Below are positions 51,087-61,232 of a stretch of DNA of 64,000 nucleotides, in pieces; position 1 is the stretch's first letter; each line of letters starts with the position of its first letter. A program made the position numbers and the translations under genes. This DNA comes from Parvivirga hydrogeniphila (GTDB lineage: Bacteria; Actinomycetota; Coriobacteriia; Anaerosomatales; Anaerosomataceae): NCBI RefSeq assembly GCF_023371205.1, contig NZ_JAMCCO010000001.1:244662-308661 (forward strand). The letters run 5' to 3'. A model generated the notes under the pieces. It worked only from the letters and a program-made list of their open reading frames with translations. It did no database searches and was not told where the DNA came from.

Positions 51087-52439
51087 TCACAGTCCAAGTT
51101 GGTCCTTGATGTACGACCCGTTGAGCCAGAAGGACTTCTTGCAGAGCTTCTTGCCGGACGGGGTCTCGATGACATCGCGCGAGTCGCGCGCGTGGGGGCG
51201 GACATGGACTGCAGGGTTGTCGCTCTTGCGAGGCAGATACTCGGCTCGATCCTCTCTTATTCGCAAGACGGTTTCCTCGAAGCAGGCCCTTGCATGGGTC
51301 TCGACGTCATTCAGCGGCATGCTCCAGAAGCGCGTCGCAGCAAGGACGGGCGCCCCTGATGCATTGAGTCGGTAAATGACGAAGAAGAAGCGTTTGCTGA
51401 GCTCTTCTCTGAGGTCGCTCTCCTCCCACGTCTGTTCGACGAGCTTTCGATAATCGAACGCCCGGAACGAGATGTCTTCCTTGGGGCGTCCAGAGGGCAG
51501 TATCCGCATGGTGCGAACCACGAGACCCGCTTTCTCGAACTCCGCAGCCCGCTCGCCTGGCGAAAGGCCGAGTATGGCATCTGTTATCGAAGCGAAGTAG
51601 CCCTTGGATGACCTGCTGGCCTTGACCCCGAGCAATCCTGCGATCTCGTCTGCCGTCTTGCCGATGTAGGGTGCGAACCGCTCAGCGATGGCGCTCTCGA
51701 AGTCGGTTTTCGAGAGCTCTTGCGCGTCGACAAGCGGACGGAGGCCTGCTTTTTCGCGCCGCTCAAGGCTGTCTCGGATGATCGAGTTCATGTAGGAAGC
51801 CTTGAGCGCCAAGGCTCGTGGCTTTGCAGGGACGCTGGAGTATGGCTGCTTGGTCCTCTTGGACGAATCGGCTGACTTCGTGCAAGCCGCAAGGTAGAGC
51901 GTGTCTCCCTCGGAGAGCTCGTGAGCGCGACCTTCGCGGATCTTCGCGACGATCTTGTGCCAGTCTTGACGGATTATCTCGAGGTCTTCCGGAGGGAATT
52001 CCCACAGGCGGACTATCTTGATGACGAAATCTGCCGGGTCCTTACCCGGTTCATGCAAGTAGAAGACCAACAACAGGTGGGCGTTCTTGCGAAGGAAGGA
52101 GCTGTTCTCCCACTGCTCGCCCACGATTGCGCAGTAATCGATCATGCCTAGCACCAGACGCTCTTTCGCGACCAGCTTGGAGCGCACCCTCTTCAGCGGC
52201 GTGGACTTGAGCTCGATCCCGGCCTCCTCGAAGTCGGGCTCGCTCTTGTTCCCCGGATTGATGCGGAAGTAATGCCGCTCAAGTGCGCTTCCGAAGCCGC
52301 CCTTGTCGGACGTGAAGTCGATCTGCACGTCAAGGTCGCGCGCCATCTCGCGCAACGTGCGCCCTATCAGGCGCTGTGCATGCGCCAGAATAGAGTCTCG
52401 ATCCGTCGGGTCGTAGGGCAACTCTGTACCGTTCGGCAT
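51087..52439 (-). CDS. Sau3AI/MutH-type restriction endonuclease
   Basis: 450 residues, ATG after GGAGGATTCT. The N-terminal half has the MutH/Sau3AI fold: DKGGFGSALERHYFRIN, then EPDFEEAGIELKSTPLKR, giving the catalytic Asp ... Glu-x-Lys. Sau3AI has a second, inactive MutH-like half, and here residues ~230-440 (KTDFESAIAERFAPYIGKTA; DISFRAFDYRKLVEQTWEES) fit that. It should cut unmethylated GATC. Forms a type II unit with the methyltransferase (81 bp downstream) and vsr. Confidence 0.9.
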   Translation of the reverse strand: MPNGTELPYDPTDRDSILAHAQRLIGRTLREMARDLDVQIDFTSDKGGFGSALERHYFRINPGNKSEPDFEEAGIELKSTPLKRVRSKLVAKERLVLGMIDYCAIVGEQWENSSFLRKNAHLLLVFYLHEPGKDPADFVIKIVRLWEFPPEDLEIIRQDWHKIVAKIREGRAHELSEGDTLYLAACTKSADSSKRTKQPYSSVPAKPRALALKASYMNSIIRDSLERREKAGLRPLVDAQELSKTDFESAIAERFAPYIGKTADEIAGLLGVKASRSSKGYFASITDAILGLSPGERAAEFEKAGLVVRTMRILPSGRPKEDISFRAFDYRKLVEQTWEESDLREELSKRFFFVIYRLNASGAPVLAATRFWSMPLNDVETHARACFEETVLRIREDRAEYLPRKSDNPAVHVRPHARDSRDVIETPSGKKLCKKSFWLNGSYIKDQLGL

Positions 52440-52573
52440 AGAATCCTCCGTCGTGACGCCCGGCTCCGTGAAGATACCACGTGAGCCGGGCGTGGGGCTT
52501 CGATGTGCGGACAGCGGCCGGCGATCAATGGCTATACTTCGCTGTGTATCGGCCCTGGCTTCCGGGAGGTCCC

Positions 52574-53857
52574 ATGCTTGACGCCAAGTTCGTCCGCGAC
52601 AACATCGATCTCGTGCGCCAGGCGCTCGCGAACCGGGGCGCGTCGTGGGACATCGACCGGTTCTTGGAGCTCGACGCCGAGCGACGGCGGCTCATCGCAA
52701 AGACCGAAAGCCGCCAGGCGGCGCGCAACGCCGCGTCCAAGGAGATCGGCGCGCTCATGAAGGCAGGCGACGCGGCCGCAGCTGAAGCGCTCAAGGAGCA
52801 GGTCCGCGGCCTGAACGACGAGATCGCCGGCCTCGAGGAGGCGCTCGCGGCCGTCGACGCGGCCACCCGCGACCTCCTGCTGACGATCCCGAACATCCCG
52901 CACGAGAGCGTGCCTGTCGGCCCGGACGAGTCGGCGAACGTGGAGGTGCGCCGCTGGGGGACGCCGCCGGCGTTCGACTTCGAGCCCAAGGCGCACTGGG
53001 ACCTCGGACCCGAGCTCGGCATCATCGACTTCGAGCGGGGCGTGAAGCTCGCGAAGAGCAGGTTCGTGGTGCTCGGCCGCGACGGGGCCCGCCTGAACCG
53101 TGCGCTCATCAACTTCATGCTGGAGGAGCACGCTAAGCGCGGCTACACCGAGTGGTCGCTTCCGGCGCTCGCGAACGCCGAGACGCTTCTCGGCACGGGC
53201 CAGCTGCCGAAGTTCGAAGAGGACCTGTTCAAGACCTCAGAAGGGCTCTACCTCATCCCCACGGCGGAAGTGCAGCTGACCAACCTGCACCGCGACGAGG
53301 TGCTGGACGCCTCTGCGCTGCCGCTCAAGTACTGCGCGTACACGCCGTGCTTCCGCGAGGAGGCAGGAGCGGCCGGGCGCGACACGCGAGGCATGATCCG
53401 CGTGCACCAGTTCGACAAGGTGGAGCTCGTGAAGCTCACGACGCCGGAGTCGTCTCTCGACGAGCTCGAAGGTATGGTGGCTGATGCGGAGCACATCTTG
53501 CAGGCGCTCGGCCTGGCGTACCGCGTGGTGGTGCTCTGCACGGGGGACATGGGCTTCTCGTCCGCGAAAACCTACGACATCGAGGTGTGGCTGCCGTCGT
53601 ACGGCGGCTACAAGGAGATCTCCAGCTGCAGCGACTGCTGGGACTTCCAGGCCCGACGCGCGTCGATCAAGTACCGCGACCCGGCGGCATTCAAGGGCAG
53701 CCGCTTCGTGCACACGCTGAACGGCAGCGGGCTTGCGGTGGGTCGCACGCTGGTGGCGGTCCTCGAGAACTACCAGCAGCCTGACGGCTCCGTCGTCGTT
53801 CCCGAGGCGCTGCGCCCGTACATGGGCGGCCAGGAGGTCATCCGGCCCGCGGGGTAG
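52574..53857 (+). CDS. serS: Seryl-tRNA synthetase
   Basis: 427 residues. Coiled-coil N-terminal arm (residues ~30-100, KFVRDNIDLVRQALANRG start), then the class II core: motif 2 FREEAGAAGRDTRGMIRVHQF and motif 3 GSGLAVGRTLVAVLENYQ. ATG 52574 is preceded by GGGAGG. TATACT (52533-52538) lies ~36 bp upstream; no T-box fits in that space. Charges Ser, whose tRNAs appear at 63560 and 63769. Confidence 0.97.
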   Translation: MLDAKFVRDNIDLVRQALANRGASWDIDRFLELDAERRRLIAKTESRQAARNAASKEIGALMKAGDAAAAEALKEQVRGLNDEIAGLEEALAAVDAATRDLLLTIPNIPHESVPVGPDESANVEVRRWGTPPAFDFEPKAHWDLGPELGIIDFERGVKLAKSRFVVLGRDGARLNRALINFMLEEHAKRGYTEWSLPALANAETLLGTGQLPKFEEDLFKTSEGLYLIPTAEVQLTNLHRDEVLDASALPLKYCAYTPCFREEAGAAGRDTRGMIRVHQFDKVELVKLTTPESSLDELEGMVADAEHILQALGLAYRVVVLCTGDMGFSSAKTYDIEVWLPSYGGYKEISSCSDCWDFQARRASIKYRDPAAFKGSRFVHTLNGSGLAVGRTLVAVLENYQQPDGSVVVPEALRPYMGGQEVIRPAG

Positions 53858-53962
53858 GCCGCAGGCGTGCGGAACGCGGGCGCGGTGCGGGGGCTGGGTC
53901 GGCCATTACCGCGATGTTCGAAGCGGTCCGAAGGGCGTATCATGTCGCCGAGGAGCCGCATC

Positions 53963-54700
53963 ATGCCGCGCGTGACGATCGACCTGCATAACCACACGCC
54001 ACTCATCCCCACCGACTACCGGGGGGATACGGCGACGACGCCGCACGAGATCGTCGAACGTGCGCTGGAGTGCGGCATCGACGTCTTCGGCGCCACCGAC
54101 CACTTCAGCGTCCTGTGGGTCCCGCTGCTGCTTGCGGCCGCGGAGGAGGTCGCTGCAACGACGGGCCGGCGGCTGTGCGTCATCCCCGGCAGCGAGATCA
54201 AGGTGCGTCACGCAGGCGAGGAGACGCACCTCGTGGCGCTGTTCTCGCCGGCGACGTACCTGCGCGATTTCGCCGCCCTCATGGACGGTCTCGGGCTGCG
54301 GCGTATGCCTGCGCCGATCGACGGGCTGCCGGCGCTGTGCGTGCACCGCGACCCGCTCGAGGTCGCGGCGCTCATCGACGCGATCGGCGGCATCTGCGTC
54401 GTCGGGCACGTCGACCGCACCTTCGGCGACTACCGCTTCATCGATTCGGACCTCGTGCACGAGCTCGTCGAGAGCCACGCCGCGCACGCGATCGAGCTCA
54501 TCGACTGCTCGTCGCGCTCGCGCTTCCGTGACGGGCTCGCCATCGCGCACATCTCCTCGTCGGACTCGCACTCGCTCGACGAGATGGGCAGGCGCACGAG
54601 CGAGATCGAGCTTCCCGAGGTGAGCTTCGAGGGGCTCCGCCAGGCGTTCATCGCGATGCGCTCGCCGGGCGTCGCGGAAGCCCGCTCAGCAGCCGTCTGA
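53963..54700 (+). CDS. PHP-domain phosphoesterase-like protein
   Basis: 245 residues, ATG 53963 with GAGGAG eight bases upstream. PHP metal motifs: DLHNHT, GATDHF, GSEIK and ETHLVALF, CVVGHVDR and SSDSHSLDEMGR, enough for a trinuclear site. Such proteins include polyphosphate/nucleoside phosphatases and PHP exonucleases. Substrate not known. Convergent with apgM; GGGCGC/GCGCCC (54701-54719) could form a weak terminator between them. Confidence 0.87.
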   Translation: MPRVTIDLHNHTPLIPTDYRGDTATTPHEIVERALECGIDVFGATDHFSVLWVPLLLAAAEEVAATTGRRLCVIPGSEIKVRHAGEETHLVALFSPATYLRDFAALMDGLGLRRMPAPIDGLPALCVHRDPLEVAALIDAIGGICVVGHVDRTFGDYRFIDSDLVHELVESHAAHAIELIDCSSRSRFRDGLAIAHISSSDSHSLDEMGRRTSEIELPEVSFEGLRQAFIAMRSPGVAEARSAAV

Positions 54701-54728
54701 GGGCGCGCGGGTTGCGCCCGAGCCCTCG

Positions 54729-56042
54729 CTAGCCCTCGTCGGCCGGCTCGAGCGGCACGAGGTCTTCCGCGCGCGGCCTTCCGAGCGCGAGATGGGGCGT
54801 CACGCGGTCAGCGAGGAATGCCGAGCGGTCGGCGGCGTCCAGCGCGATCGGCATCACGTCGGTGCCGACGACCCAGCCGAGCGAGCCGTGGGCGCACGGC
54901 TCCTCGCCGAAGGCCGCGACCTCGTCAGCGCCGATCACGCCGCCGGCGATCACGAGCGGCACCGCGCCGCCGCCGTGGTAGAGCGGGCCTGCGGACGGCG
55001 TCTGATGGTCGGCGCAGACCACGACGACGGCCTCAAAACGCTCGGCCACGTGCACCAGAGGGGCGAGCGCGCGGTCGCAGGCTGCGATCACCTCCGCCTT
55101 GTGGCGCGGGTCTTTGGTGTGTCCGGCGTGGTCGGGGTGTTTGGTGTGCAGGTGCACGAAGTCGTACCCCTCGGCCAGGAGCCCGAGCGTCGCCTCGACG
55201 CGCTCGGCCACGTCCTCGTGCGGATCGGCGCGCATCGGGATCTCCACGTGGTCGAGCCCGACCGCGGCAGCGAGCCCCGCGTACAGCACGCCGGCCCCGA
55301 GCGAGACGCCTTTCAGGCCGAAGCGGCGCGAAAACGGCGTGATGGACGGCTGCGAGCCGGCCCACTTGACGAGCATGAAGTCGAGGTCCCGCCCAGCGAG
55401 GATCCGCCGTGCGAAGCGCATCCACGCGTTGAGGACGGCGGCAGTGCGGGCGGCAGCGTCCGGGTCGGGCGCCTCTTCGAGCGGCATGACCTTGAGGACC
55501 GGGACGTTCGCGCGCAGCGGGTCCGCGTCGCTCACGAAGTGCGAGATCGGGCGGCCGTCGAGCGGACGGAGGTAGAGCAGGCCCTGCAGCCCGCCGGTGT
55601 AGACGAACCGCACGGCCACGCCGTCGATCCGAGCATCCAGCGAAACGCCGTCGAGGTCGGCCGCACCGTGGCGCGGGTCGGGCCGCTCGTCGATCCACAG
55701 CACGCCGTTCCGCTCGCTCACGCGCGCGAGGTTCGCGCGCAGCACGACCTCGCCGGCGTCCGGCGGGAGCCCTTCGCCGATGGCTTCCAGAAGCCCTCGT
55801 CCCGGGAAGTCCTCGGGCGCGTACCCGAACAGCGCGAAGTGGGCCTGATGGGAGCTGGGAGCGAGACCCGGCCGCAGCGGATGGAGCGACCCGCACCGCC
55901 CGAGCCTGGCGAGCGCATCGAGGTTCGGAGTGTTGGCGGCCTCTGCGGGCGTGCGGCCGTCGAGCTCGGCGTGCGGCCTGTCGCCGAGGCCGTCGAGCAC
56001 CACAAGGACGATCGGAAGCGAGGAGTCGCCCGCCCGCGTCAT
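54729..56042 (-). CDS. Archaeal-type 2,3-bisphosphoglycerate-independent phosphoglycerate mutase
   Basis: 437 residues. Alkaline-phosphatase-superfamily fold: metal-binding VLVVLDGLGDRP, the segment SSHQAHFALFGYAPEDFPGR (place of the phospho-Ser in ApgM), ERNGVLWIDER, HLHTKHPDHAGHTKDP and VVVCADHQTPSAG and HGSLGW metal ligands. ApgM interconverts 3- and 2-phosphoglycerate in glycolysis. The Ser position is not the canonical TAH/S form (SSHQAH), so this copy may be divergent. Confidence 0.86.
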   Translation of the reverse strand: MTRAGDSSLPIVLVVLDGLGDRPHAELDGRTPAEAANTPNLDALARLGRCGSLHPLRPGLAPSSHQAHFALFGYAPEDFPGRGLLEAIGEGLPPDAGEVVLRANLARVSERNGVLWIDERPDPRHGAADLDGVSLDARIDGVAVRFVYTGGLQGLLYLRPLDGRPISHFVSDADPLRANVPVLKVMPLEEAPDPDAAARTAAVLNAWMRFARRILAGRDLDFMLVKWAGSQPSITPFSRRFGLKGVSLGAGVLYAGLAAAVGLDHVEIPMRADPHEDVAERVEATLGLLAEGYDFVHLHTKHPDHAGHTKDPRHKAEVIAACDRALAPLVHVAERFEAVVVVCADHQTPSAGPLYHGGGAVPLVIAGGVIGADEVAAFGEEPCAHGSLGWVVGTDVMPIALDAADRSAFLADRVTPHLALGRPRAEDLVPLEPADEG

Positions 56043-56067
56043 CGCGCCCTCGCCGAGAACGCCTCGC

Positions 56068-56808
56068 TCACCGCTCGAGCACCGTCCGTACGACCGCCGC
56101 GAAGTCGCTCGCCTCGCCGCCCTCGCGCTCGGCGCGGAAGGCGTCGACGACGGCGCGGCCGACCGGCTCGAAGAACTCGGCGAGGTAGCGCGCGTAGCCG
56201 GCCTCGTCGTACGACACGCTCCCGTCGAGCCTGAGGTAGTTGCCCGAGAGCTGGCAGCCCATCTGCCGCTCGCCCTGGCGCCAGTCGGTGCCGGTGAGGG
56301 CCTCGATCTGCTCTCCGCTCATCGAGCGCAGCGGCGAGAGCAGCGGGACGCCCGCGTACGAGAGGACCCGGGTCGCGGCGTCGATGCTCGCCGCCGTCTG
56401 GGAGAGCTTGATCCTGCCGTCGTGCGTGTCGCGCTCGCCGGATATGACAGGCGCGTTGCCGTGCGACCACGCGAGCGGCACCCGCAAGAGGTGGAGGTAC
56501 AGGTGGCATGCCAGGCACGGGGAGCAGACGCCGTAGCGCGCGAGCACCTCGGCCATGGGGAGCGCGTTCATCGCCGACCACAGCGCAGGATCGGCGAGCG
56601 GCACGGGGTCGAGCACGCGCACGTGCGGCGGAAGAGCGCTGCGCAGCCGCTCCACTGCGCGGTACGGCGCCTCCTTGTCGCCGACCTCGGTGCCCGTGTA
56701 GCCGATGGTCGGCAGCACGGTCTCGAAGCCGTGCTCGCGGACGGCGGCGACTGCAGCGGCGACGCTGTCGCGGCCGGCGATCTCTGCGATGGCGATCGAG
56801 CGCTCCAT
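56068..56808 (-). CDS. Unrecognised protein with CxxCxxCH motif, possibly PP-loop-like
   Basis: 246 residues. I do not recognise a family with certainty. Features: the start SIAIAEIAGRDSVAAAVAAV resembles the SGGxDS/GRDS segment of PP-loop ATP pyrophosphatases; later comes VCSPCLACHLYLHLL, then ISGERDTHDGRIKLSQTAAS and an isolated Cys in RQMGCQLSGNYL. The C-x2-C-x2-C plus distant Cys could hold an Fe-S cluster or zinc. The ATG is probably leaderless: TACACT lies six bases upstream (minus strand) and there is no ribosome-binding site. Divergent from the Zwf-Gnd gene. Confidence 0.7.
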   Translation of the reverse strand: MERSIAIAEIAGRDSVAAAVAAVREHGFETVLPTIGYTGTEVGDKEAPYRAVERLRSALPPHVRVLDPVPLADPALWSAMNALPMAEVLARYGVCSPCLACHLYLHLLRVPLAWSHGNAPVISGERDTHDGRIKLSQTAASIDAATRVLSYAGVPLLSPLRSMSGEQIEALTGTDWRQGERQMGCQLSGNYLRLDGSVSYDEAGYARYLAEFFEPVGRAVVDAFRAEREGGEASDFAAVVRTVLER

Positions 56809-56814
56809 GCAATC

Positions 56815-56844
56815 AGTGTACCCGCTTGCGGCCGCGGCGGTCAG
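56815..56844 (-). promoter_or_regulatory. Promoter giving a leaderless transcript for the CxxCxxCH protein
   Basis: On the minus strand CTGACC (56844-56839), an 18-base spacer and TACACT (56820-56815), six bases before the ATG. Transcription would start at the start codon. Confidence 0.5.
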
Positions 56845-56911
56845 CGTCGCCGTGATTGAACGAACGGACGCGCGGGTACCACACTCCGAGTGTTCGGACG
56901 GAAGGAGACCG

Positions 56912-59278
56912 ATGGACGCCACGCTCGACCCCACCACGCTGGTCGTATTCGGTGCGACCGGCGACCTCATGGCCCGCAAGATCGTGCCCTCCCTGGCGTA
57001 CCTCGCTGCACGAGGGCGGCTGCCAGAGCGCTTCCGCGTGATCGGCTTCTCGCGCCGCAGCTGGACGGACGAGGACTTCCGCGCTCACGTGCGCGCCATC
57101 ATCGACGCGTATCCCGGCGCGGCGCCTCGCGGCGCGGCCCTCGACGCCTTCGTGGAGCGCTTCTCGTACCAGCAAGGCACCTTCGACGACCCCCGGGCGT
57201 ACGACGCGCTTGCTGCGGACATCCAGGCGGTGGCGAGCACGTGGGAGGGCCGGTGCAACCGGCTGTTCTACCTTGCGGTGCCCCCGGAGCACTACCGCAC
57301 CATCTTCGAGCGCCTCGCAGGGAGCGGTCTGGTCACGGGGTGCGACGCCGACGGCGCTTGCACGCGCGTGCTCGTCGAGAAGCCGTTCGGCAAGGACGGT
57401 GCGAGCGCGCAAGAGCTCGACGAGGTGCTCGGCTCGCTGTTCGCGGAGGAGCAGATCTACCGCATCGACCACTACCTCGCCAAGGAGATGCTCCAAGGCA
57501 TCCTGAGCTTCCGCTTCTCGAACACCCTCATGGAGCCGTCGTGGAACGCGGAATCCATCCAGCGCATCGATGTCACGCTCCTCGAATCGATCGGCGTCGA
57601 GAAGCGTGGCGCGTTCTACGACGGCGTGGGAGCGCTTCGTGACGTCGGCCAGAACCACCTGCTGCAGATGCTCGCGCTCGTGGGCATGGAGCGCCCAGAC
57701 GACCTCTCGGCCCGCTCCATCCGCGACGCGCGAGCGCGGTTCTTGCGCACGCTCACGCCGCCGCCGGCAGACGAGATGGCCGCCCGTTCGTTCAGGGCGC
57801 AGCACCGCGGCTACCGCGCGATCCAAGGCGTCGCGCCGGATTCCGACACCGAGACGTACTTCGCGCTGAGGTTCCACCTGAGCGGGCCGCGGTGGGGCGG
57901 CGTGCCGGTCACGCTGGAGTCAGGCAAGCGGATGGGTGAGCCGCTCAAGCAGATCGCCGTCACCTTCCGCGCCCCGGACGCGTGCCTGTGCGACGCGTCG
58001 CGCCCGGGTCCGTACGAGAACCGCGTCATCTTCCAACTGGAGCCGCACGAGTCGATCCGCATCGAGTTCTGGGCGAAGAAGCCAGGCTTCGAGCACGAGC
58101 TGGAGAAGCGGGAGTTCACCTTCTTCCTGTACGAGAAGCAGGAGAAGGTCCAGTACGTCGAGGAGTACGCGACGCTGCTGCTCGATGCGATCGAGGGCGA
58201 TCAGACGCTGTTCGTGAGCACCGACGAGGTGCGCGAGATGTGGCGCTTCATCGATCCGTGGCTCCAGGTGTGGCGCACAGGGGCCGTGCCGCTGGAGCTC
58301 TACGAACCCGACACCTCCGAGGTGCGCGACCGGGCGTTCGCGCGGTTGGACGAGGCCGATGCGCGCCCGAAGCGGATCGGCGTGGTCGGCCTCGGCAAGA
58401 TGGGCGCCGCGCTCGCTCGCAACCTGCTGGACCACGGGTGGCAGGTCGTCGGCCACAACCGCACGTTCGCGGTCGCCGAGCGCATGGCGGGCGAGGGCCT
58501 GCTGCCCGCGCGGACGCTTTCGGACCTCGTCGCGTTCCTCCCGCCGCCGCGCGTCGTGTGGCTGATGCTGCCTGCTGGCGAGCCGACCGAGCAGGCGCTG
58601 TTCGGCGAGGGCGGCCTTGCGGAGCTCCTGCAGGAAGGCGACACGGTCATCGACGGCGGCAACTCGCACTTCGCCGACGCCGAGAGACGCGCGAAACGGC
58701 TCGCAGAACGCGGCGTCCGCTTCCTCGACGTCGGGACCTCCGGCGGACCGGGCGGAGCGCGCTTTGGCGCGTGTCTGATGATCGGTGGCGAGCGCTCGGA
58801 CTTCGAGCGCCTCGAGCACCTGTGGCGCGACGTGGCGGCGCGCGACGCCTACCGCTTCTTCGAGGGGCACGGCGGCGGGCACTTCGTGAAGATGGTCCAC
58901 AACGGCATCGAGTACGGCATGATGCAGGCGATCGCTGAGGGCTTCGCCGTCCTGGACGCGGCGCCGCTCGGGATCGACCTGCCGAAGGCGGCGGAGGTCT
59001 ACAACCGGCGGAGCGTCATCGAGTCCCGGCTGATCGGCTGGCTGCGGGAGGCGTTCGAGCTCTTCGGCCCTGATCTCGCCGGCGTGTCGAGCACCGTGGC
59101 GCACACGGGCGAGGGGCAGTGGACGGTGGAGACGGCGCGTGCGCTCGGCGTGCCGGTTCCGGTGATCGAAGAATCGCTGGAGTTCCGTAAGCGCTCGGCC
59201 GAACGGCCGTCGTACGCCGGCAAGGTGCTGTCCGCGCTCCGGAACCGGTTCGGCGGACACGAAGCGGCGGGTGGTTAG
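56912..59278 (+). CDS. Glucose-6-phosphate dehydrogenase / 6-phosphogluconate dehydrogenase fusion
   Basis: 788 residues from ATG 56912 (GAAGGAG upstream). Residues ~1-480 are G6PD: VVFGATGDLMARKIVPSLAY (NADP fold), LVEKPFGKDG and the active-site RIDHYLAKE. From ~487 starts a short-type 6PGDH: RIGVVGLGKMGAALARNL, VIDGGNSHFADAER, DVGTSGGPGGARFGACLMIG, and GGHFVKMVHNGIEYGMMQ with the catalytic Lys. The join is a short linker (LDEADARP) with no stop or restart signal. The two enzymes are the first and third steps of the oxidative pentose phosphate pathway; 6-phosphogluconolactonase is not included and the lactone may hydrolyse spontaneously. Confidence 0.95.
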   Translation: MDATLDPTTLVVFGATGDLMARKIVPSLAYLAARGRLPERFRVIGFSRRSWTDEDFRAHVRAIIDAYPGAAPRGAALDAFVERFSYQQGTFDDPRAYDALAADIQAVASTWEGRCNRLFYLAVPPEHYRTIFERLAGSGLVTGCDADGACTRVLVEKPFGKDGASAQELDEVLGSLFAEEQIYRIDHYLAKEMLQGILSFRFSNTLMEPSWNAESIQRIDVTLLESIGVEKRGAFYDGVGALRDVGQNHLLQMLALVGMERPDDLSARSIRDARARFLRTLTPPPADEMAARSFRAQHRGYRAIQGVAPDSDTETYFALRFHLSGPRWGGVPVTLESGKRMGEPLKQIAVTFRAPDACLCDASRPGPYENRVIFQLEPHESIRIEFWAKKPGFEHELEKREFTFFLYEKQEKVQYVEEYATLLLDAIEGDQTLFVSTDEVREMWRFIDPWLQVWRTGAVPLELYEPDTSEVRDRAFARLDEADARPKRIGVVGLGKMGAALARNLLDHGWQVVGHNRTFAVAERMAGEGLLPARTLSDLVAFLPPPRVVWLMLPAGEPTEQALFGEGGLAELLQEGDTVIDGGNSHFADAERRAKRLAERGVRFLDVGTSGGPGGARFGACLMIGGERSDFERLEHLWRDVAARDAYRFFEGHGGGHFVKMVHNGIEYGMMQAIAEGFAVLDAAPLGIDLPKAAEVYNRRSVIESRLIGWLREAFELFGPDLAGVSSTVAHTGEGQWTVETARALGVPVPVIEESLEFRKRSAERPSYAGKVLSALRNRFGGHEAAGG

Positions 59279-59561: not shown

Positions 59562-61232
59562 TCAGCGCTTCTTAATCTCCGCGAAGTGAGCCTCGTATCG
59601 GCCGCCCCCGCCCTTCAGAAGCGTCTCGTACGGAGGCACTTCGTAGAGGCGCAAGCGGTTGTCGAGGAAGTCGCTCGACACCAGCAGCCGCCCGTCGGCG
59701 CTGATGTCGAGCGCGGTCGGCTGGTTCCCGCACACGACGGCGTCGAGCGGCCGGCCGGTGAGCGCGTCGAATACGAGGATCGAGCCCCACTCGGGCCCAG
59801 GGAGGTAGTAGGACTTCGGATTGTTCTCGCCACGGCAGCTCACGAACAGGACGCGCCCATCGGGAGACAGGACGATGGTGTTGGGTTTCTCGTCGGTGTC
59901 GACGAGCTTCTTGGTGGTCCCGGTGCGCATGTCGTGGACCCACACGCAGTCAGCTGCCATGTCCGAGATGTACAGCCGTCCCGTGCGCTCGTCGCCGACG
60001 AGGTGCCGCAGCGCCTTGCCGCCCGTGAAAGCGGCCGTCACCTTGCCGGTCGCAAGGTCGATGCGGTCGAGCTGGCCGCTGTCGAAGCCGCCGACGTAGA
60101 GGGTCGTGCCGTCGGCCGTCGCGTACATCCCGCGCGGCGTGTTCGACACGGGCACGCGCTTGACAAGCGCGCCGGTGGCGAGGTCGATGATGGAGACGTC
60201 GTCTCCCGACCAGTTGCTCGCGTACAGCGTCTTTTCGTCGGGCGAGAGCTCCACCCACTTCGTCCATGCGCTTTTCGTGTCGAAGGCGCGCAGGACGCGA
60301 CGCGTCTTGACGTCGATCTCGAAGCATCGGGCGGTCTCCATCTGCGAGGTGTACGCCAGGGTGCCCACGCGGTTGAAGATGACCTCCACGGCGCCGTGCT
60401 CGCCGAGGTCGATCTCGCCTGTGCGCTTGCCCGTGCGGACATCGAAGATCTCGATGGACGGCGGGCCGTTGAGGATGCTCGTCCACACTTCGCGGCCATC
60501 AGGGGTGATCGACACGCCTTTGGGCGCGCCGGAGGTGGCGATGGTGCCGAGCCCGTGCAGCAGCTGGCCCTCGGGGTCGAGGATGCACGAGATCGCAAGC
60601 GGCTCGTCGAGGAACACGCGGCGCTCGAACGGATTCCGCCCGGTCTTCGTGAGCCGGACGGTGGTCTGGCCCGCAGGCGCTCGCACGGTGCAGGGCGTGA
60701 GCGTCTCGACGGTGCTTCCGTCGGCGCATTCGATGGTGCAGGTCGCCCCCGACGGTTCGGTGCGCACGCTCACTTCGAGGGGCAACGGGGCGAGCGTGAG
60801 GCTCAGGCGCGCGGTGCGCATGCGTTTCGCGGTGATGGCGCGCTCGACGGGCGCGAAGCCTTTGCGCGTCACGCGGACGGTGTGAGCGCCAGGCGTCACT
60901 TCGCGGGCCTCGAGCGTCCCGGTGGCCGAGATCGAGCCGTCGAGGACGATGACCGCATCCGACGGCGTGGCGCGGACGGTTATCGCGGCGGGACGCGTGA
61001 GCAGGAACGCCGCGAGTCCCGCGAGGGCCGCGAGGACGAGCACGCCTGCGAGCAAACGACCGGTGCTGCGCTTGCGGCCGTACCGTCGACGAGGCGCTGC
61101 GTCCACGCGCGGCCGCCCGGTAGGCGCCGCCCGATACGCCCCGCCGACCTTCGGCACCGCGCGGTCGATGACGAGCGGCGAGGAGCGGCTCCGCGCACGT
61201 CTCGGCCTGCGTCGTGCGTGCCGGCCGGCCAT
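59562..61232 (-). CDS. Membrane-anchored PEGA-domain / beta-propeller (YVTN) protein
   Basis: 556 residues from ATG 61232 (GGAGGGG upstream). A basic N-terminus (~60 residues), one membrane helix (LLAGVLVLAALAGLAAFLL), two PEGA-like domains (~80-155 and ~155-225, e.g. ITVRATPSDAVIVLDG) and a seven-bladed YVTN-type propeller (repeat cores such as LSPDEKTLYASNWSGDDVSI and TADGTTLYVGGFDSGQL). Likely an envelope protein-binding module, extracellular side. The ATG overlaps the SDR stop by one base. Confidence 0.87.
   Translation of the reverse strand: MAGRHARRRPRRARSRSSPLVIDRAVPKVGGAYRAAPTGRPRVDAAPRRRYGRKRSTGRLLAGVLVLAALAGLAAFLLTRPAAITVRATPSDAVIVLDGSISATGTLEAREVTPGAHTVRVTRKGFAPVERAITAKRMRTARLSLTLAPLPLEVSVRTEPSGATCTIECADGSTVETLTPCTVRAPAGQTTVRLTKTGRNPFERRVFLDEPLAISCILDPEGQLLHGLGTIATSGAPKGVSITPDGREVWTSILNGPPSIEIFDVRTGKRTGEIDLGEHGAVEVIFNRVGTLAYTSQMETARCFEIDVKTRRVLRAFDTKSAWTKWVELSPDEKTLYASNWSGDDVSIIDLATGALVKRVPVSNTPRGMYATADGTTLYVGGFDSGQLDRIDLATGKVTAAFTGGKALRHLVGDERTGRLYISDMAADCVWVHDMRTGTTKKLVDTDEKPNTIVLSPDGRVLFVSCRGENNPKSYYLPGPEWGSILVFDALTGRPLDAVVCGNQPTALDISADGRLLVSSDFLDNRLRLYEVPPYETLLKGGGGRYEAHFAEIKKR

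What the first reader, a model, noticed from the sequence alone, without database searches (positions are those of the whole stretch)
56912..59278. Zwf-Gnd fusion: first and third enzymes of the oxidative pentose phosphate pathway on one chain
One uninterrupted 788-codon frame holds a full G6PD (RIDHYLAKE active site) and, from about residue 487, a full short-type 6PGDH (VGLGKMGAALARNL; KMVHNGIEYGMMQ). I know of G6PD-lactonase fusions (Plasmodium) but not of this pairing as a common form; it skips the lactonase. It could channel NADPH production or balance two cofactors if the halves prefer different ones.
Basis: partly seen in the sequence, partly recalled or inferred. Interest (0 to 1): 0.75.

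Follow-up and report, generated by a model that had tools for sequence, protein, structure and literature searches.

The report
Two sugar-oxidising enzymes fused in one
A bacterial gene makes the first and third enzymes of a standard sugar-oxidising, NADPH-making pathway as one protein; the fusion is real and has been kept across a whole order of little-studied bacteria that seem to lack the usual middle enzyme, but each half looks like a normal enzyme and a similar fusion was reported once before, in a diatom.

Summary
Confirmed. Window 56912-59278 (+) is one open 788-codon frame: a complete G6PD (residues 7-467), a linker of about 20 residues, and a complete short-type 6PGDH (487-785). It is no assembly error. 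By my count the same single frame occurs in 50 of 69 genomes of the window's order (probably Anaerosomatales/OPB41, Coriobacteriia), and in a few Patescibacteria and other Actinomycetota MAGs. Both halves are under purifying selection and keep their catalytic residues. The fusion nests inside a Patescibacteria clade where zwf and gnd are adjacent in that order. The tree implies a fused ancestor, re-splitting in a few lineages, and transfer between these groups. No DevB-type 6-phosphogluconolactonase is found in the order. The adjacent propeller gene with a Pfam "Lactonase" hit has an N-terminal membrane helix and is a poor replacement. Most likely it is a bifunctional NADPH producer that relies on spontaneous or unrecognised lactone hydrolysis; channelling is unproven. 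A G6PD-6PGD fusion was reported in the diatom Phaeodactylum (PMC3148214), so the pairing has a precedent. An ancient, order-wide bacterial short-type fusion appears undescribed in the literature I could search.

The parts
56912..59278 (+). zwf-gnd fusion gene, 788 aa plus stop
   Evidence: conserved as one frame in 50 of 69 order-level genomes (my count)
56902..56907 (+). AAGGAG, probable ribosome-binding site
   Evidence: Read directly from sequence
56930..58309 (+). G6PD half, residues 7-466; EKPFGKD 156, RIDHYLAKE 184, GQNHL 246
   Evidence: Pfam/NCBIfam, motifs, fold match to 1dpg TMt 0.88
57053..57058 (+). R48-R49 after the second Rossmann strand of the G6PD half (R48 aligns by eye with E. 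coli R50)
   Evidence: Invariant in 35 fused proteins; role of R50 from PMC4807051
58310..58369 (+). inter-enzyme linker, residues 467-486, predicted mostly as one helix (470-484)
   Evidence: Alignment, AlphaFold model with pLDDT about 95 for residues 461-480; dN/dS higher than in either half
58370..59266 (+). short-type 6PGDH half, residues 487-785; GTSGG 608, KMVHNGIEYG 660, C-terminal LRNRFGGH 776
   Evidence: NF007161, TIGR00872 above cut-off; motifs
58457..58465 (+). Asn-Arg-Thr (516-518), NADP 2'-phosphate motif of 6PGDH
   Evidence: PMC8900737
59562..61232 (-). convergent neighbour: N-terminal membrane helix, PEGA domain, beta-propeller with Pfam 'Lactonase' similarity; neighbour, probably not part of the pathway
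   Evidence: coordinates taken from the ATG of MAGRHARRR to the stop

Best explanation
The gene encodes a bifunctional enzyme. The N-terminal half oxidises glucose-6-phosphate to 6-phosphogluconolactone and the C-terminal half oxidatively decarboxylates 6-phosphogluconate to ribulose-5-phosphate, each probably making NADPH. The lactone step between them is probably spontaneous or done by an unrecognised enzyme. The main benefit is likely fixed 1:1 production and co-location of the two dehydrogenases in one oligomer. Fusion put the 6PGDH at the C-terminus, which leaves free the C-terminal tail that short 6PGDHs exchange between subunits. The fusion most likely arose in, or passed through, a lineage with adjacent zwf-gnd genes by joining of the two frames. 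Shown: architecture, conservation, selection, motifs, phylogenetic nesting, absence of DevB-type lactonase. Inferred: activities, cofactor use, oligomer, lack of need for a lactonase.
For: Both halves reach curated equivalog or subfamily cut-offs, and all 35 fused proteins match both families. Catalytic motifs are conserved across fused members. dN/dS against the nearest relative is 0.09 (zwf) and 0.11 (gnd). There is a single G6PD gene in the genome. NRT-type and R48 motifs are kept in the order-level members. Concatenated tree: fused proteins lie in a starred 23-row clade (96/94) inside Patescibacteria pairs in zwf-gnd order. A split pair inside that clade (L048) has an ATGA overlap and keeps the fused-type linker YKPDTKDIIEKSA. 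No DevB-type lactonase was found.
Against: No biochemical data. 6PGDH is not known to use the lactone directly, so without a lactonase flux may be limited. Pgl absence is by homology only. The G6PD half has Thr (T16) where the E. coli enzyme has Lys18, so exclusive NADP use is not assured. Several near-complete order members (e.g. G005, G016) have no match, so the gene is dispensable in some.
Confidence: 0.8

Rival explanations
1. The fusion channels 6-phosphogluconolactone or 6-phosphogluconate between sites, compensating for the missing lactonase (for example, hydrolysis in a confined space or a lactonase activity within the fusion).
For: Lactonase missing from the order. Fused non-order genomes also mostly lack PF01182 (7 of 8), against 8 of 15 with it among unfused Patescibacteria. 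Linker predicted as a rigid helix.
Against: The fused/unfused contrast is small, phylogenetically uncorrected and made on incomplete MAGs (one-sided hypergeometric about 0.07 by hand). No extra domain is present. Several unfused genomes (L040, L044, L045, L046, L048, L051, L083) also lack PF01182.
Confidence: 0.12
2. The two halves use different cofactors (NADP and NAD), giving a redox-balancing enzyme.
For: The 6PGDH half also passes the cut-off of TIGR00872, titled NAD+-dependent. Some non-order fused members have other residues at the NRT position (L035 DEN, L038 NTP).
Against: Window and all examined order members have N-R-(T/S/H) in 6PGDH and R48 in G6PD. Asp at the Asn position marks NAD enzymes (PMC8900737).
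Confidence: 0.06
3. Sequencing or assembly artefact joining two genes.
For: None found.
Against: The same single frame occurs in 50 order-level genomes plus unrelated MAGs.
Confidence: 0.005
4. The neighbouring propeller protein is the missing 6-phosphogluconolactonase.
For: Pfam Lactonase PF10282 40.7 bits (cut-off 21.7); conserved convergent neighbour in many order genomes.
Against: N-terminal hydrophobic helix after a basic stretch, then PEGA domain, in the homologues read, suggesting it faces outward; generic propeller hits to THOC3, YNCE and WDR5 as well; opposite strand.
Confidence: 0.04

Closest known systems
G6PD-6PGD fusion of Phaeodactylum tricornutum (Stover et al. 2011, PMC3148214)
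   Same: Same two pathway enzymes on one chain
   Different: Eukaryote, single species, annotation doubted by the authors themselves; that genome also has separate 6PGD copies and a 6PGL; here the fusion is bacterial, order-wide, the only G6PD gene, with short-type 6PGDH and no Pgl found
G6PD::6PGL fusions (Plasmodium, Giardia, Trichomonas, animal H6PD)
   Same: Oxidative pentose phosphate enzymes fused to G6PD
   Different: Fuse the lactonase, not 6PGDH
Adjacent zwf-gnd genes of Patescibacteria and mycobacteria
   Same: Same gene order, short 6PGDH, often nearly overlapping (L040, L041, L048, L053)
   Different: Separate proteins; mycobacterial pairs fall outside the clade of the fusion
Short-chain 6PGDH (Gnd2/YqeC type; PDB 6vpb, 8ihe, 4e21)
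   Same: C-terminal half is a full member
   Different: Free-standing enzymes

Membership tests
Glucose-6-phosphate dehydrogenase (Zwf) | Full-length equivalog match | tested here: met
   TIGR00871 437.4 bits vs cut-off 400.6
Glucose-6-phosphate dehydrogenase (Zwf) | RIDHYL(x)KE and EKPxG motifs, conserved His in QNHL | tested here: met
   Residues 184, 156, 246
Glucose-6-phosphate dehydrogenase (Zwf) | Catalytic activity and NADP use | not testable with these tools
   R48 supports NADP binding; no assay
Short-type 6-phosphogluconate dehydrogenase | Full-length family match, undoubled helical domain | tested here: met
   NF007161 326.9 bits vs 271, profile 2-298/302; Pfam 6PGD covers 1-116/290 only
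Short-type 6-phosphogluconate dehydrogenase | SGG, KxxHNGIEY, C-terminal FGGH | tested here: met
Short-type 6-phosphogluconate dehydrogenase | Tetramer with tail exchange | not testable with these tools
   Literature only (PMC8900737)
6-phosphogluconolactonase present on chain or in genome | PF01182/TIGR01198 match above cut-off | tested here: not met
   None in G000; no lactonase domain on the chain

The most novel reading that the evidence does not exclude
An ancient bacterial Zwf-Gnd bifunctional enzyme, shared between Patescibacteria and Anaerosomatales by lateral transfer, runs the oxidative pentose phosphate pathway without any dedicated lactonase, with the fused oligomer itself handling or tolerating the lactone step.
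Probability: 0.2. Interest if true: 0.65.

Novelty: new variant of a known kind. Interest (0 to 1): 0.45.

Why it matters
It is a natural, evolutionarily stable fusion of the two NADPH-making steps of a central pathway, in organisms that appear to lack the intermediate enzyme. It gives a direct test of whether the lactonase is needed and whether fusing non-consecutive enzymes gives a kinetic benefit. The shared fusion also marks gene exchange between Patescibacteria and a deep actinobacterial order. It could serve as a one-gene NADPH module in biotechnology.

Tried and rejected
Assembly artefact: rejected by 50 order-level genomes. Different cofactors: disfavoured by motifs. Neighbour propeller as lactonase: disfavoured by its membrane helix and PEGA domain. 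SMP-30-type gluconolactonase: only weak hits in G000, best 26.8 bits, not pursued. Fused sequences as a clean single clade without reversals: rejected by the AU test, p 0.010. G148 as a fusion: it is two frames separated by TAG. L049, scored as unfused in the first tree, is really cut by the contig end and was dropped from the concatenated tree. Fold search added only that the G6PD half matches known G6PDs; no solved chain among the 60 listed covers both halves.

Full report
Observation. The frame at 56912-59278 (+) is exactly as described: ATG with AAGGAG just upstream, 788 codons, no internal stop. Pfam and NCBIfam place a complete G6PD at residues 7-467 and a complete short-type 6PGDH at 487-785, both above curated cut-offs. 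The window lies at 244662-308661 of contig 1 of a 1.84 Mb genome (99.99% complete), which has no other G6PD gene.

Not an artefact. Of the 69 genomes sampled at order level or closer (G000-G068), my count gives 50 with the full-length protein in one frame (58-89% identity to the window); nine more have pieces, several of them at contig ends. None of the 30 genomes from other orders of the class has a match to the G6PD half. The closest named relative is a Coriobacteriia MAG labelled 'Slackia sp. Tomsk' (L031, apparently the same genome as G002), and L033 is labelled Coriobacteriia. The paper describing that order's first isolates mentions only an 'incomplete pentose phosphate pathway' and no fusion (PMC9686372).

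Selection and active sites. dN/dS between window and nearest relative is 0.09 (G6PD half), 0.11 (6PGDH half) and 0.30 (linker). Fused members keep RIDHYLxKE, EKPxG, QNH, SGG, KM(V/I)HNGIEYG and FGxH with few exceptions; all 35 aligned fused proteins match both families.

Cofactors. The 6PGDH half has N516-R517-T518. In 6PGDH this triplet contacts the NADP 2'-phosphate, and Asp in place of Asn marks NAD enzymes (PMC8900737). All examined order members have N-R-(T/S/H). The G6PD half has R48, which I align by eye with E. coli R50, a determinant of NADP preference (PMC4807051); R48 and R49 are invariant in 35 fused proteins. It has Thr instead of Lys18, as many NADP-preferring and dual enzymes do, so strict NADP specificity is not shown. 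Some fused Patescibacteria differ (L035 DEN, L038 NTP).

Lactonase. No PF01182 match was found in G000; in the order there are only weak partial matches, in a few genomes. No TIGR01198 match reaches its cut-off in any order genome, while the search rings over the cut-off in 6 control genomes. The only PF10282 hits in G000 are in the convergent neighbour 59562-61232 (-). Its homologues have a basic N-terminus, one hydrophobic helix, a PEGA domain and then the propeller, which suggests it faces outside the cytoplasm. Spontaneous hydrolysis of the lactone is known, though the authors of PMC3148214 state that 6PGL is needed for efficient flux. A non-homologous lactonase cannot be excluded.

Origin. 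In genome contigs, full fusions also occur in Patescibacteria MAGs (L035, L037, L038, L039, L042), one unassigned MAG (L034) and Actinomycetota MAG L036. In a sample of 296 genomes of the phylum, L141 (the same sequence as L036 in the motifs read) and L142 were the only fusions outside the order. Most other phyla seen have gnd before zwf as separate genes. Patescibacteria have zwf before gnd, sometimes with a single in-frame stop between the frames (L040, L041). On separate and concatenated trees the fused proteins nest inside this Patescibacteria clade. In the concatenated tree a 23-row clade (96/94) holds all 20 fused rows and three split ones (L048, L083, L045). Three changes are needed, for example one gain and two losses, and the AU test rejects a fused-only clade (p 0.010). 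L045 is a long branch and its place is unsure. L048, a split pair inside the clade, has an ATGA stop/start overlap and keeps the linker motif YKPDTKDIIEKSA seen in the fusions (YxPD(T/S)xE(V/I)), whereas unfused relatives outside tend to end in the canonical YxPGS-type tail. This fits secondary splitting, or less likely the pre-fusion state. Lateral transfer between Patescibacteria and this order is implied; the nesting favours Patescibacteria as donor, but sampling is limited and MAG mis-binning can affect single records, though hardly the 50 order genomes.

Structure. The AlphaFold model (35 sequences) has mean pLDDT 86 and pTM 0.78; the linker is predicted mostly as a helix, residues 470-484, with pLDDT about 95 up to residue 480. 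The G6PD half matches 1dpg with TMt 0.88. No inter-site distance was computed. Short 6PGDHs exchange their C-terminal tails and are mostly tetramers (PMC8900737); having 6PGDH at the C-terminus is compatible with that (inference).

Novelty. The closest precedent is the G6PD-6PGD fusion of Phaeodactylum tricornutum, whose annotation its discoverers called doubtful; their 2011 search found no others (PMC3148214). Full-text searches for a bacterial zwf-gnd fusion found none, in an open-access library only. I call it a new variant of a known kind, of moderate interest: each enzyme is ordinary, but the fusion is old, conserved and coupled to an apparent lack of lactonase.

Noticed in passing
window 59562-61232 (-): Membrane-anchored PEGA plus beta-propeller protein, conserved as convergent neighbour of the fusion in many genomes of the order (54-93% identity); function unknown.
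   Followed up: partly
window 52481-53857 and 53867-56979: In other families of the order serS lies directly upstream of the fusion; in this genus the two are separated by a PHP-domain gene, a phosphoglycerate mutase gene and a gene with no Pfam match.
   Followed up: partly
window 56068-56979 (-): Protein of up to 303 aa with no Pfam match even at E 5, divergent from the fusion gene and conserved in the genus (75-80%), also found in L033 at 52%.
   Followed up: partly
window 51087-52439 (-): 450-aa protein with a MutH-like domain; from memory its size resembles Sau3AI-type restriction enzymes.
   Followed up: no
L040 7396-7398 and L041 2889-2891: Patescibacteria zwf and gnd frames separated by a single in-frame stop codon (TGA, TAA), as expected for precursors or remnants of the fusion.
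   Followed up: yes
G052 and G027: Two full-length copies of the fusion in one genome (G052: C33 and C42; G027: C38 and C4), duplication or MAG mixing.
   Followed up: no
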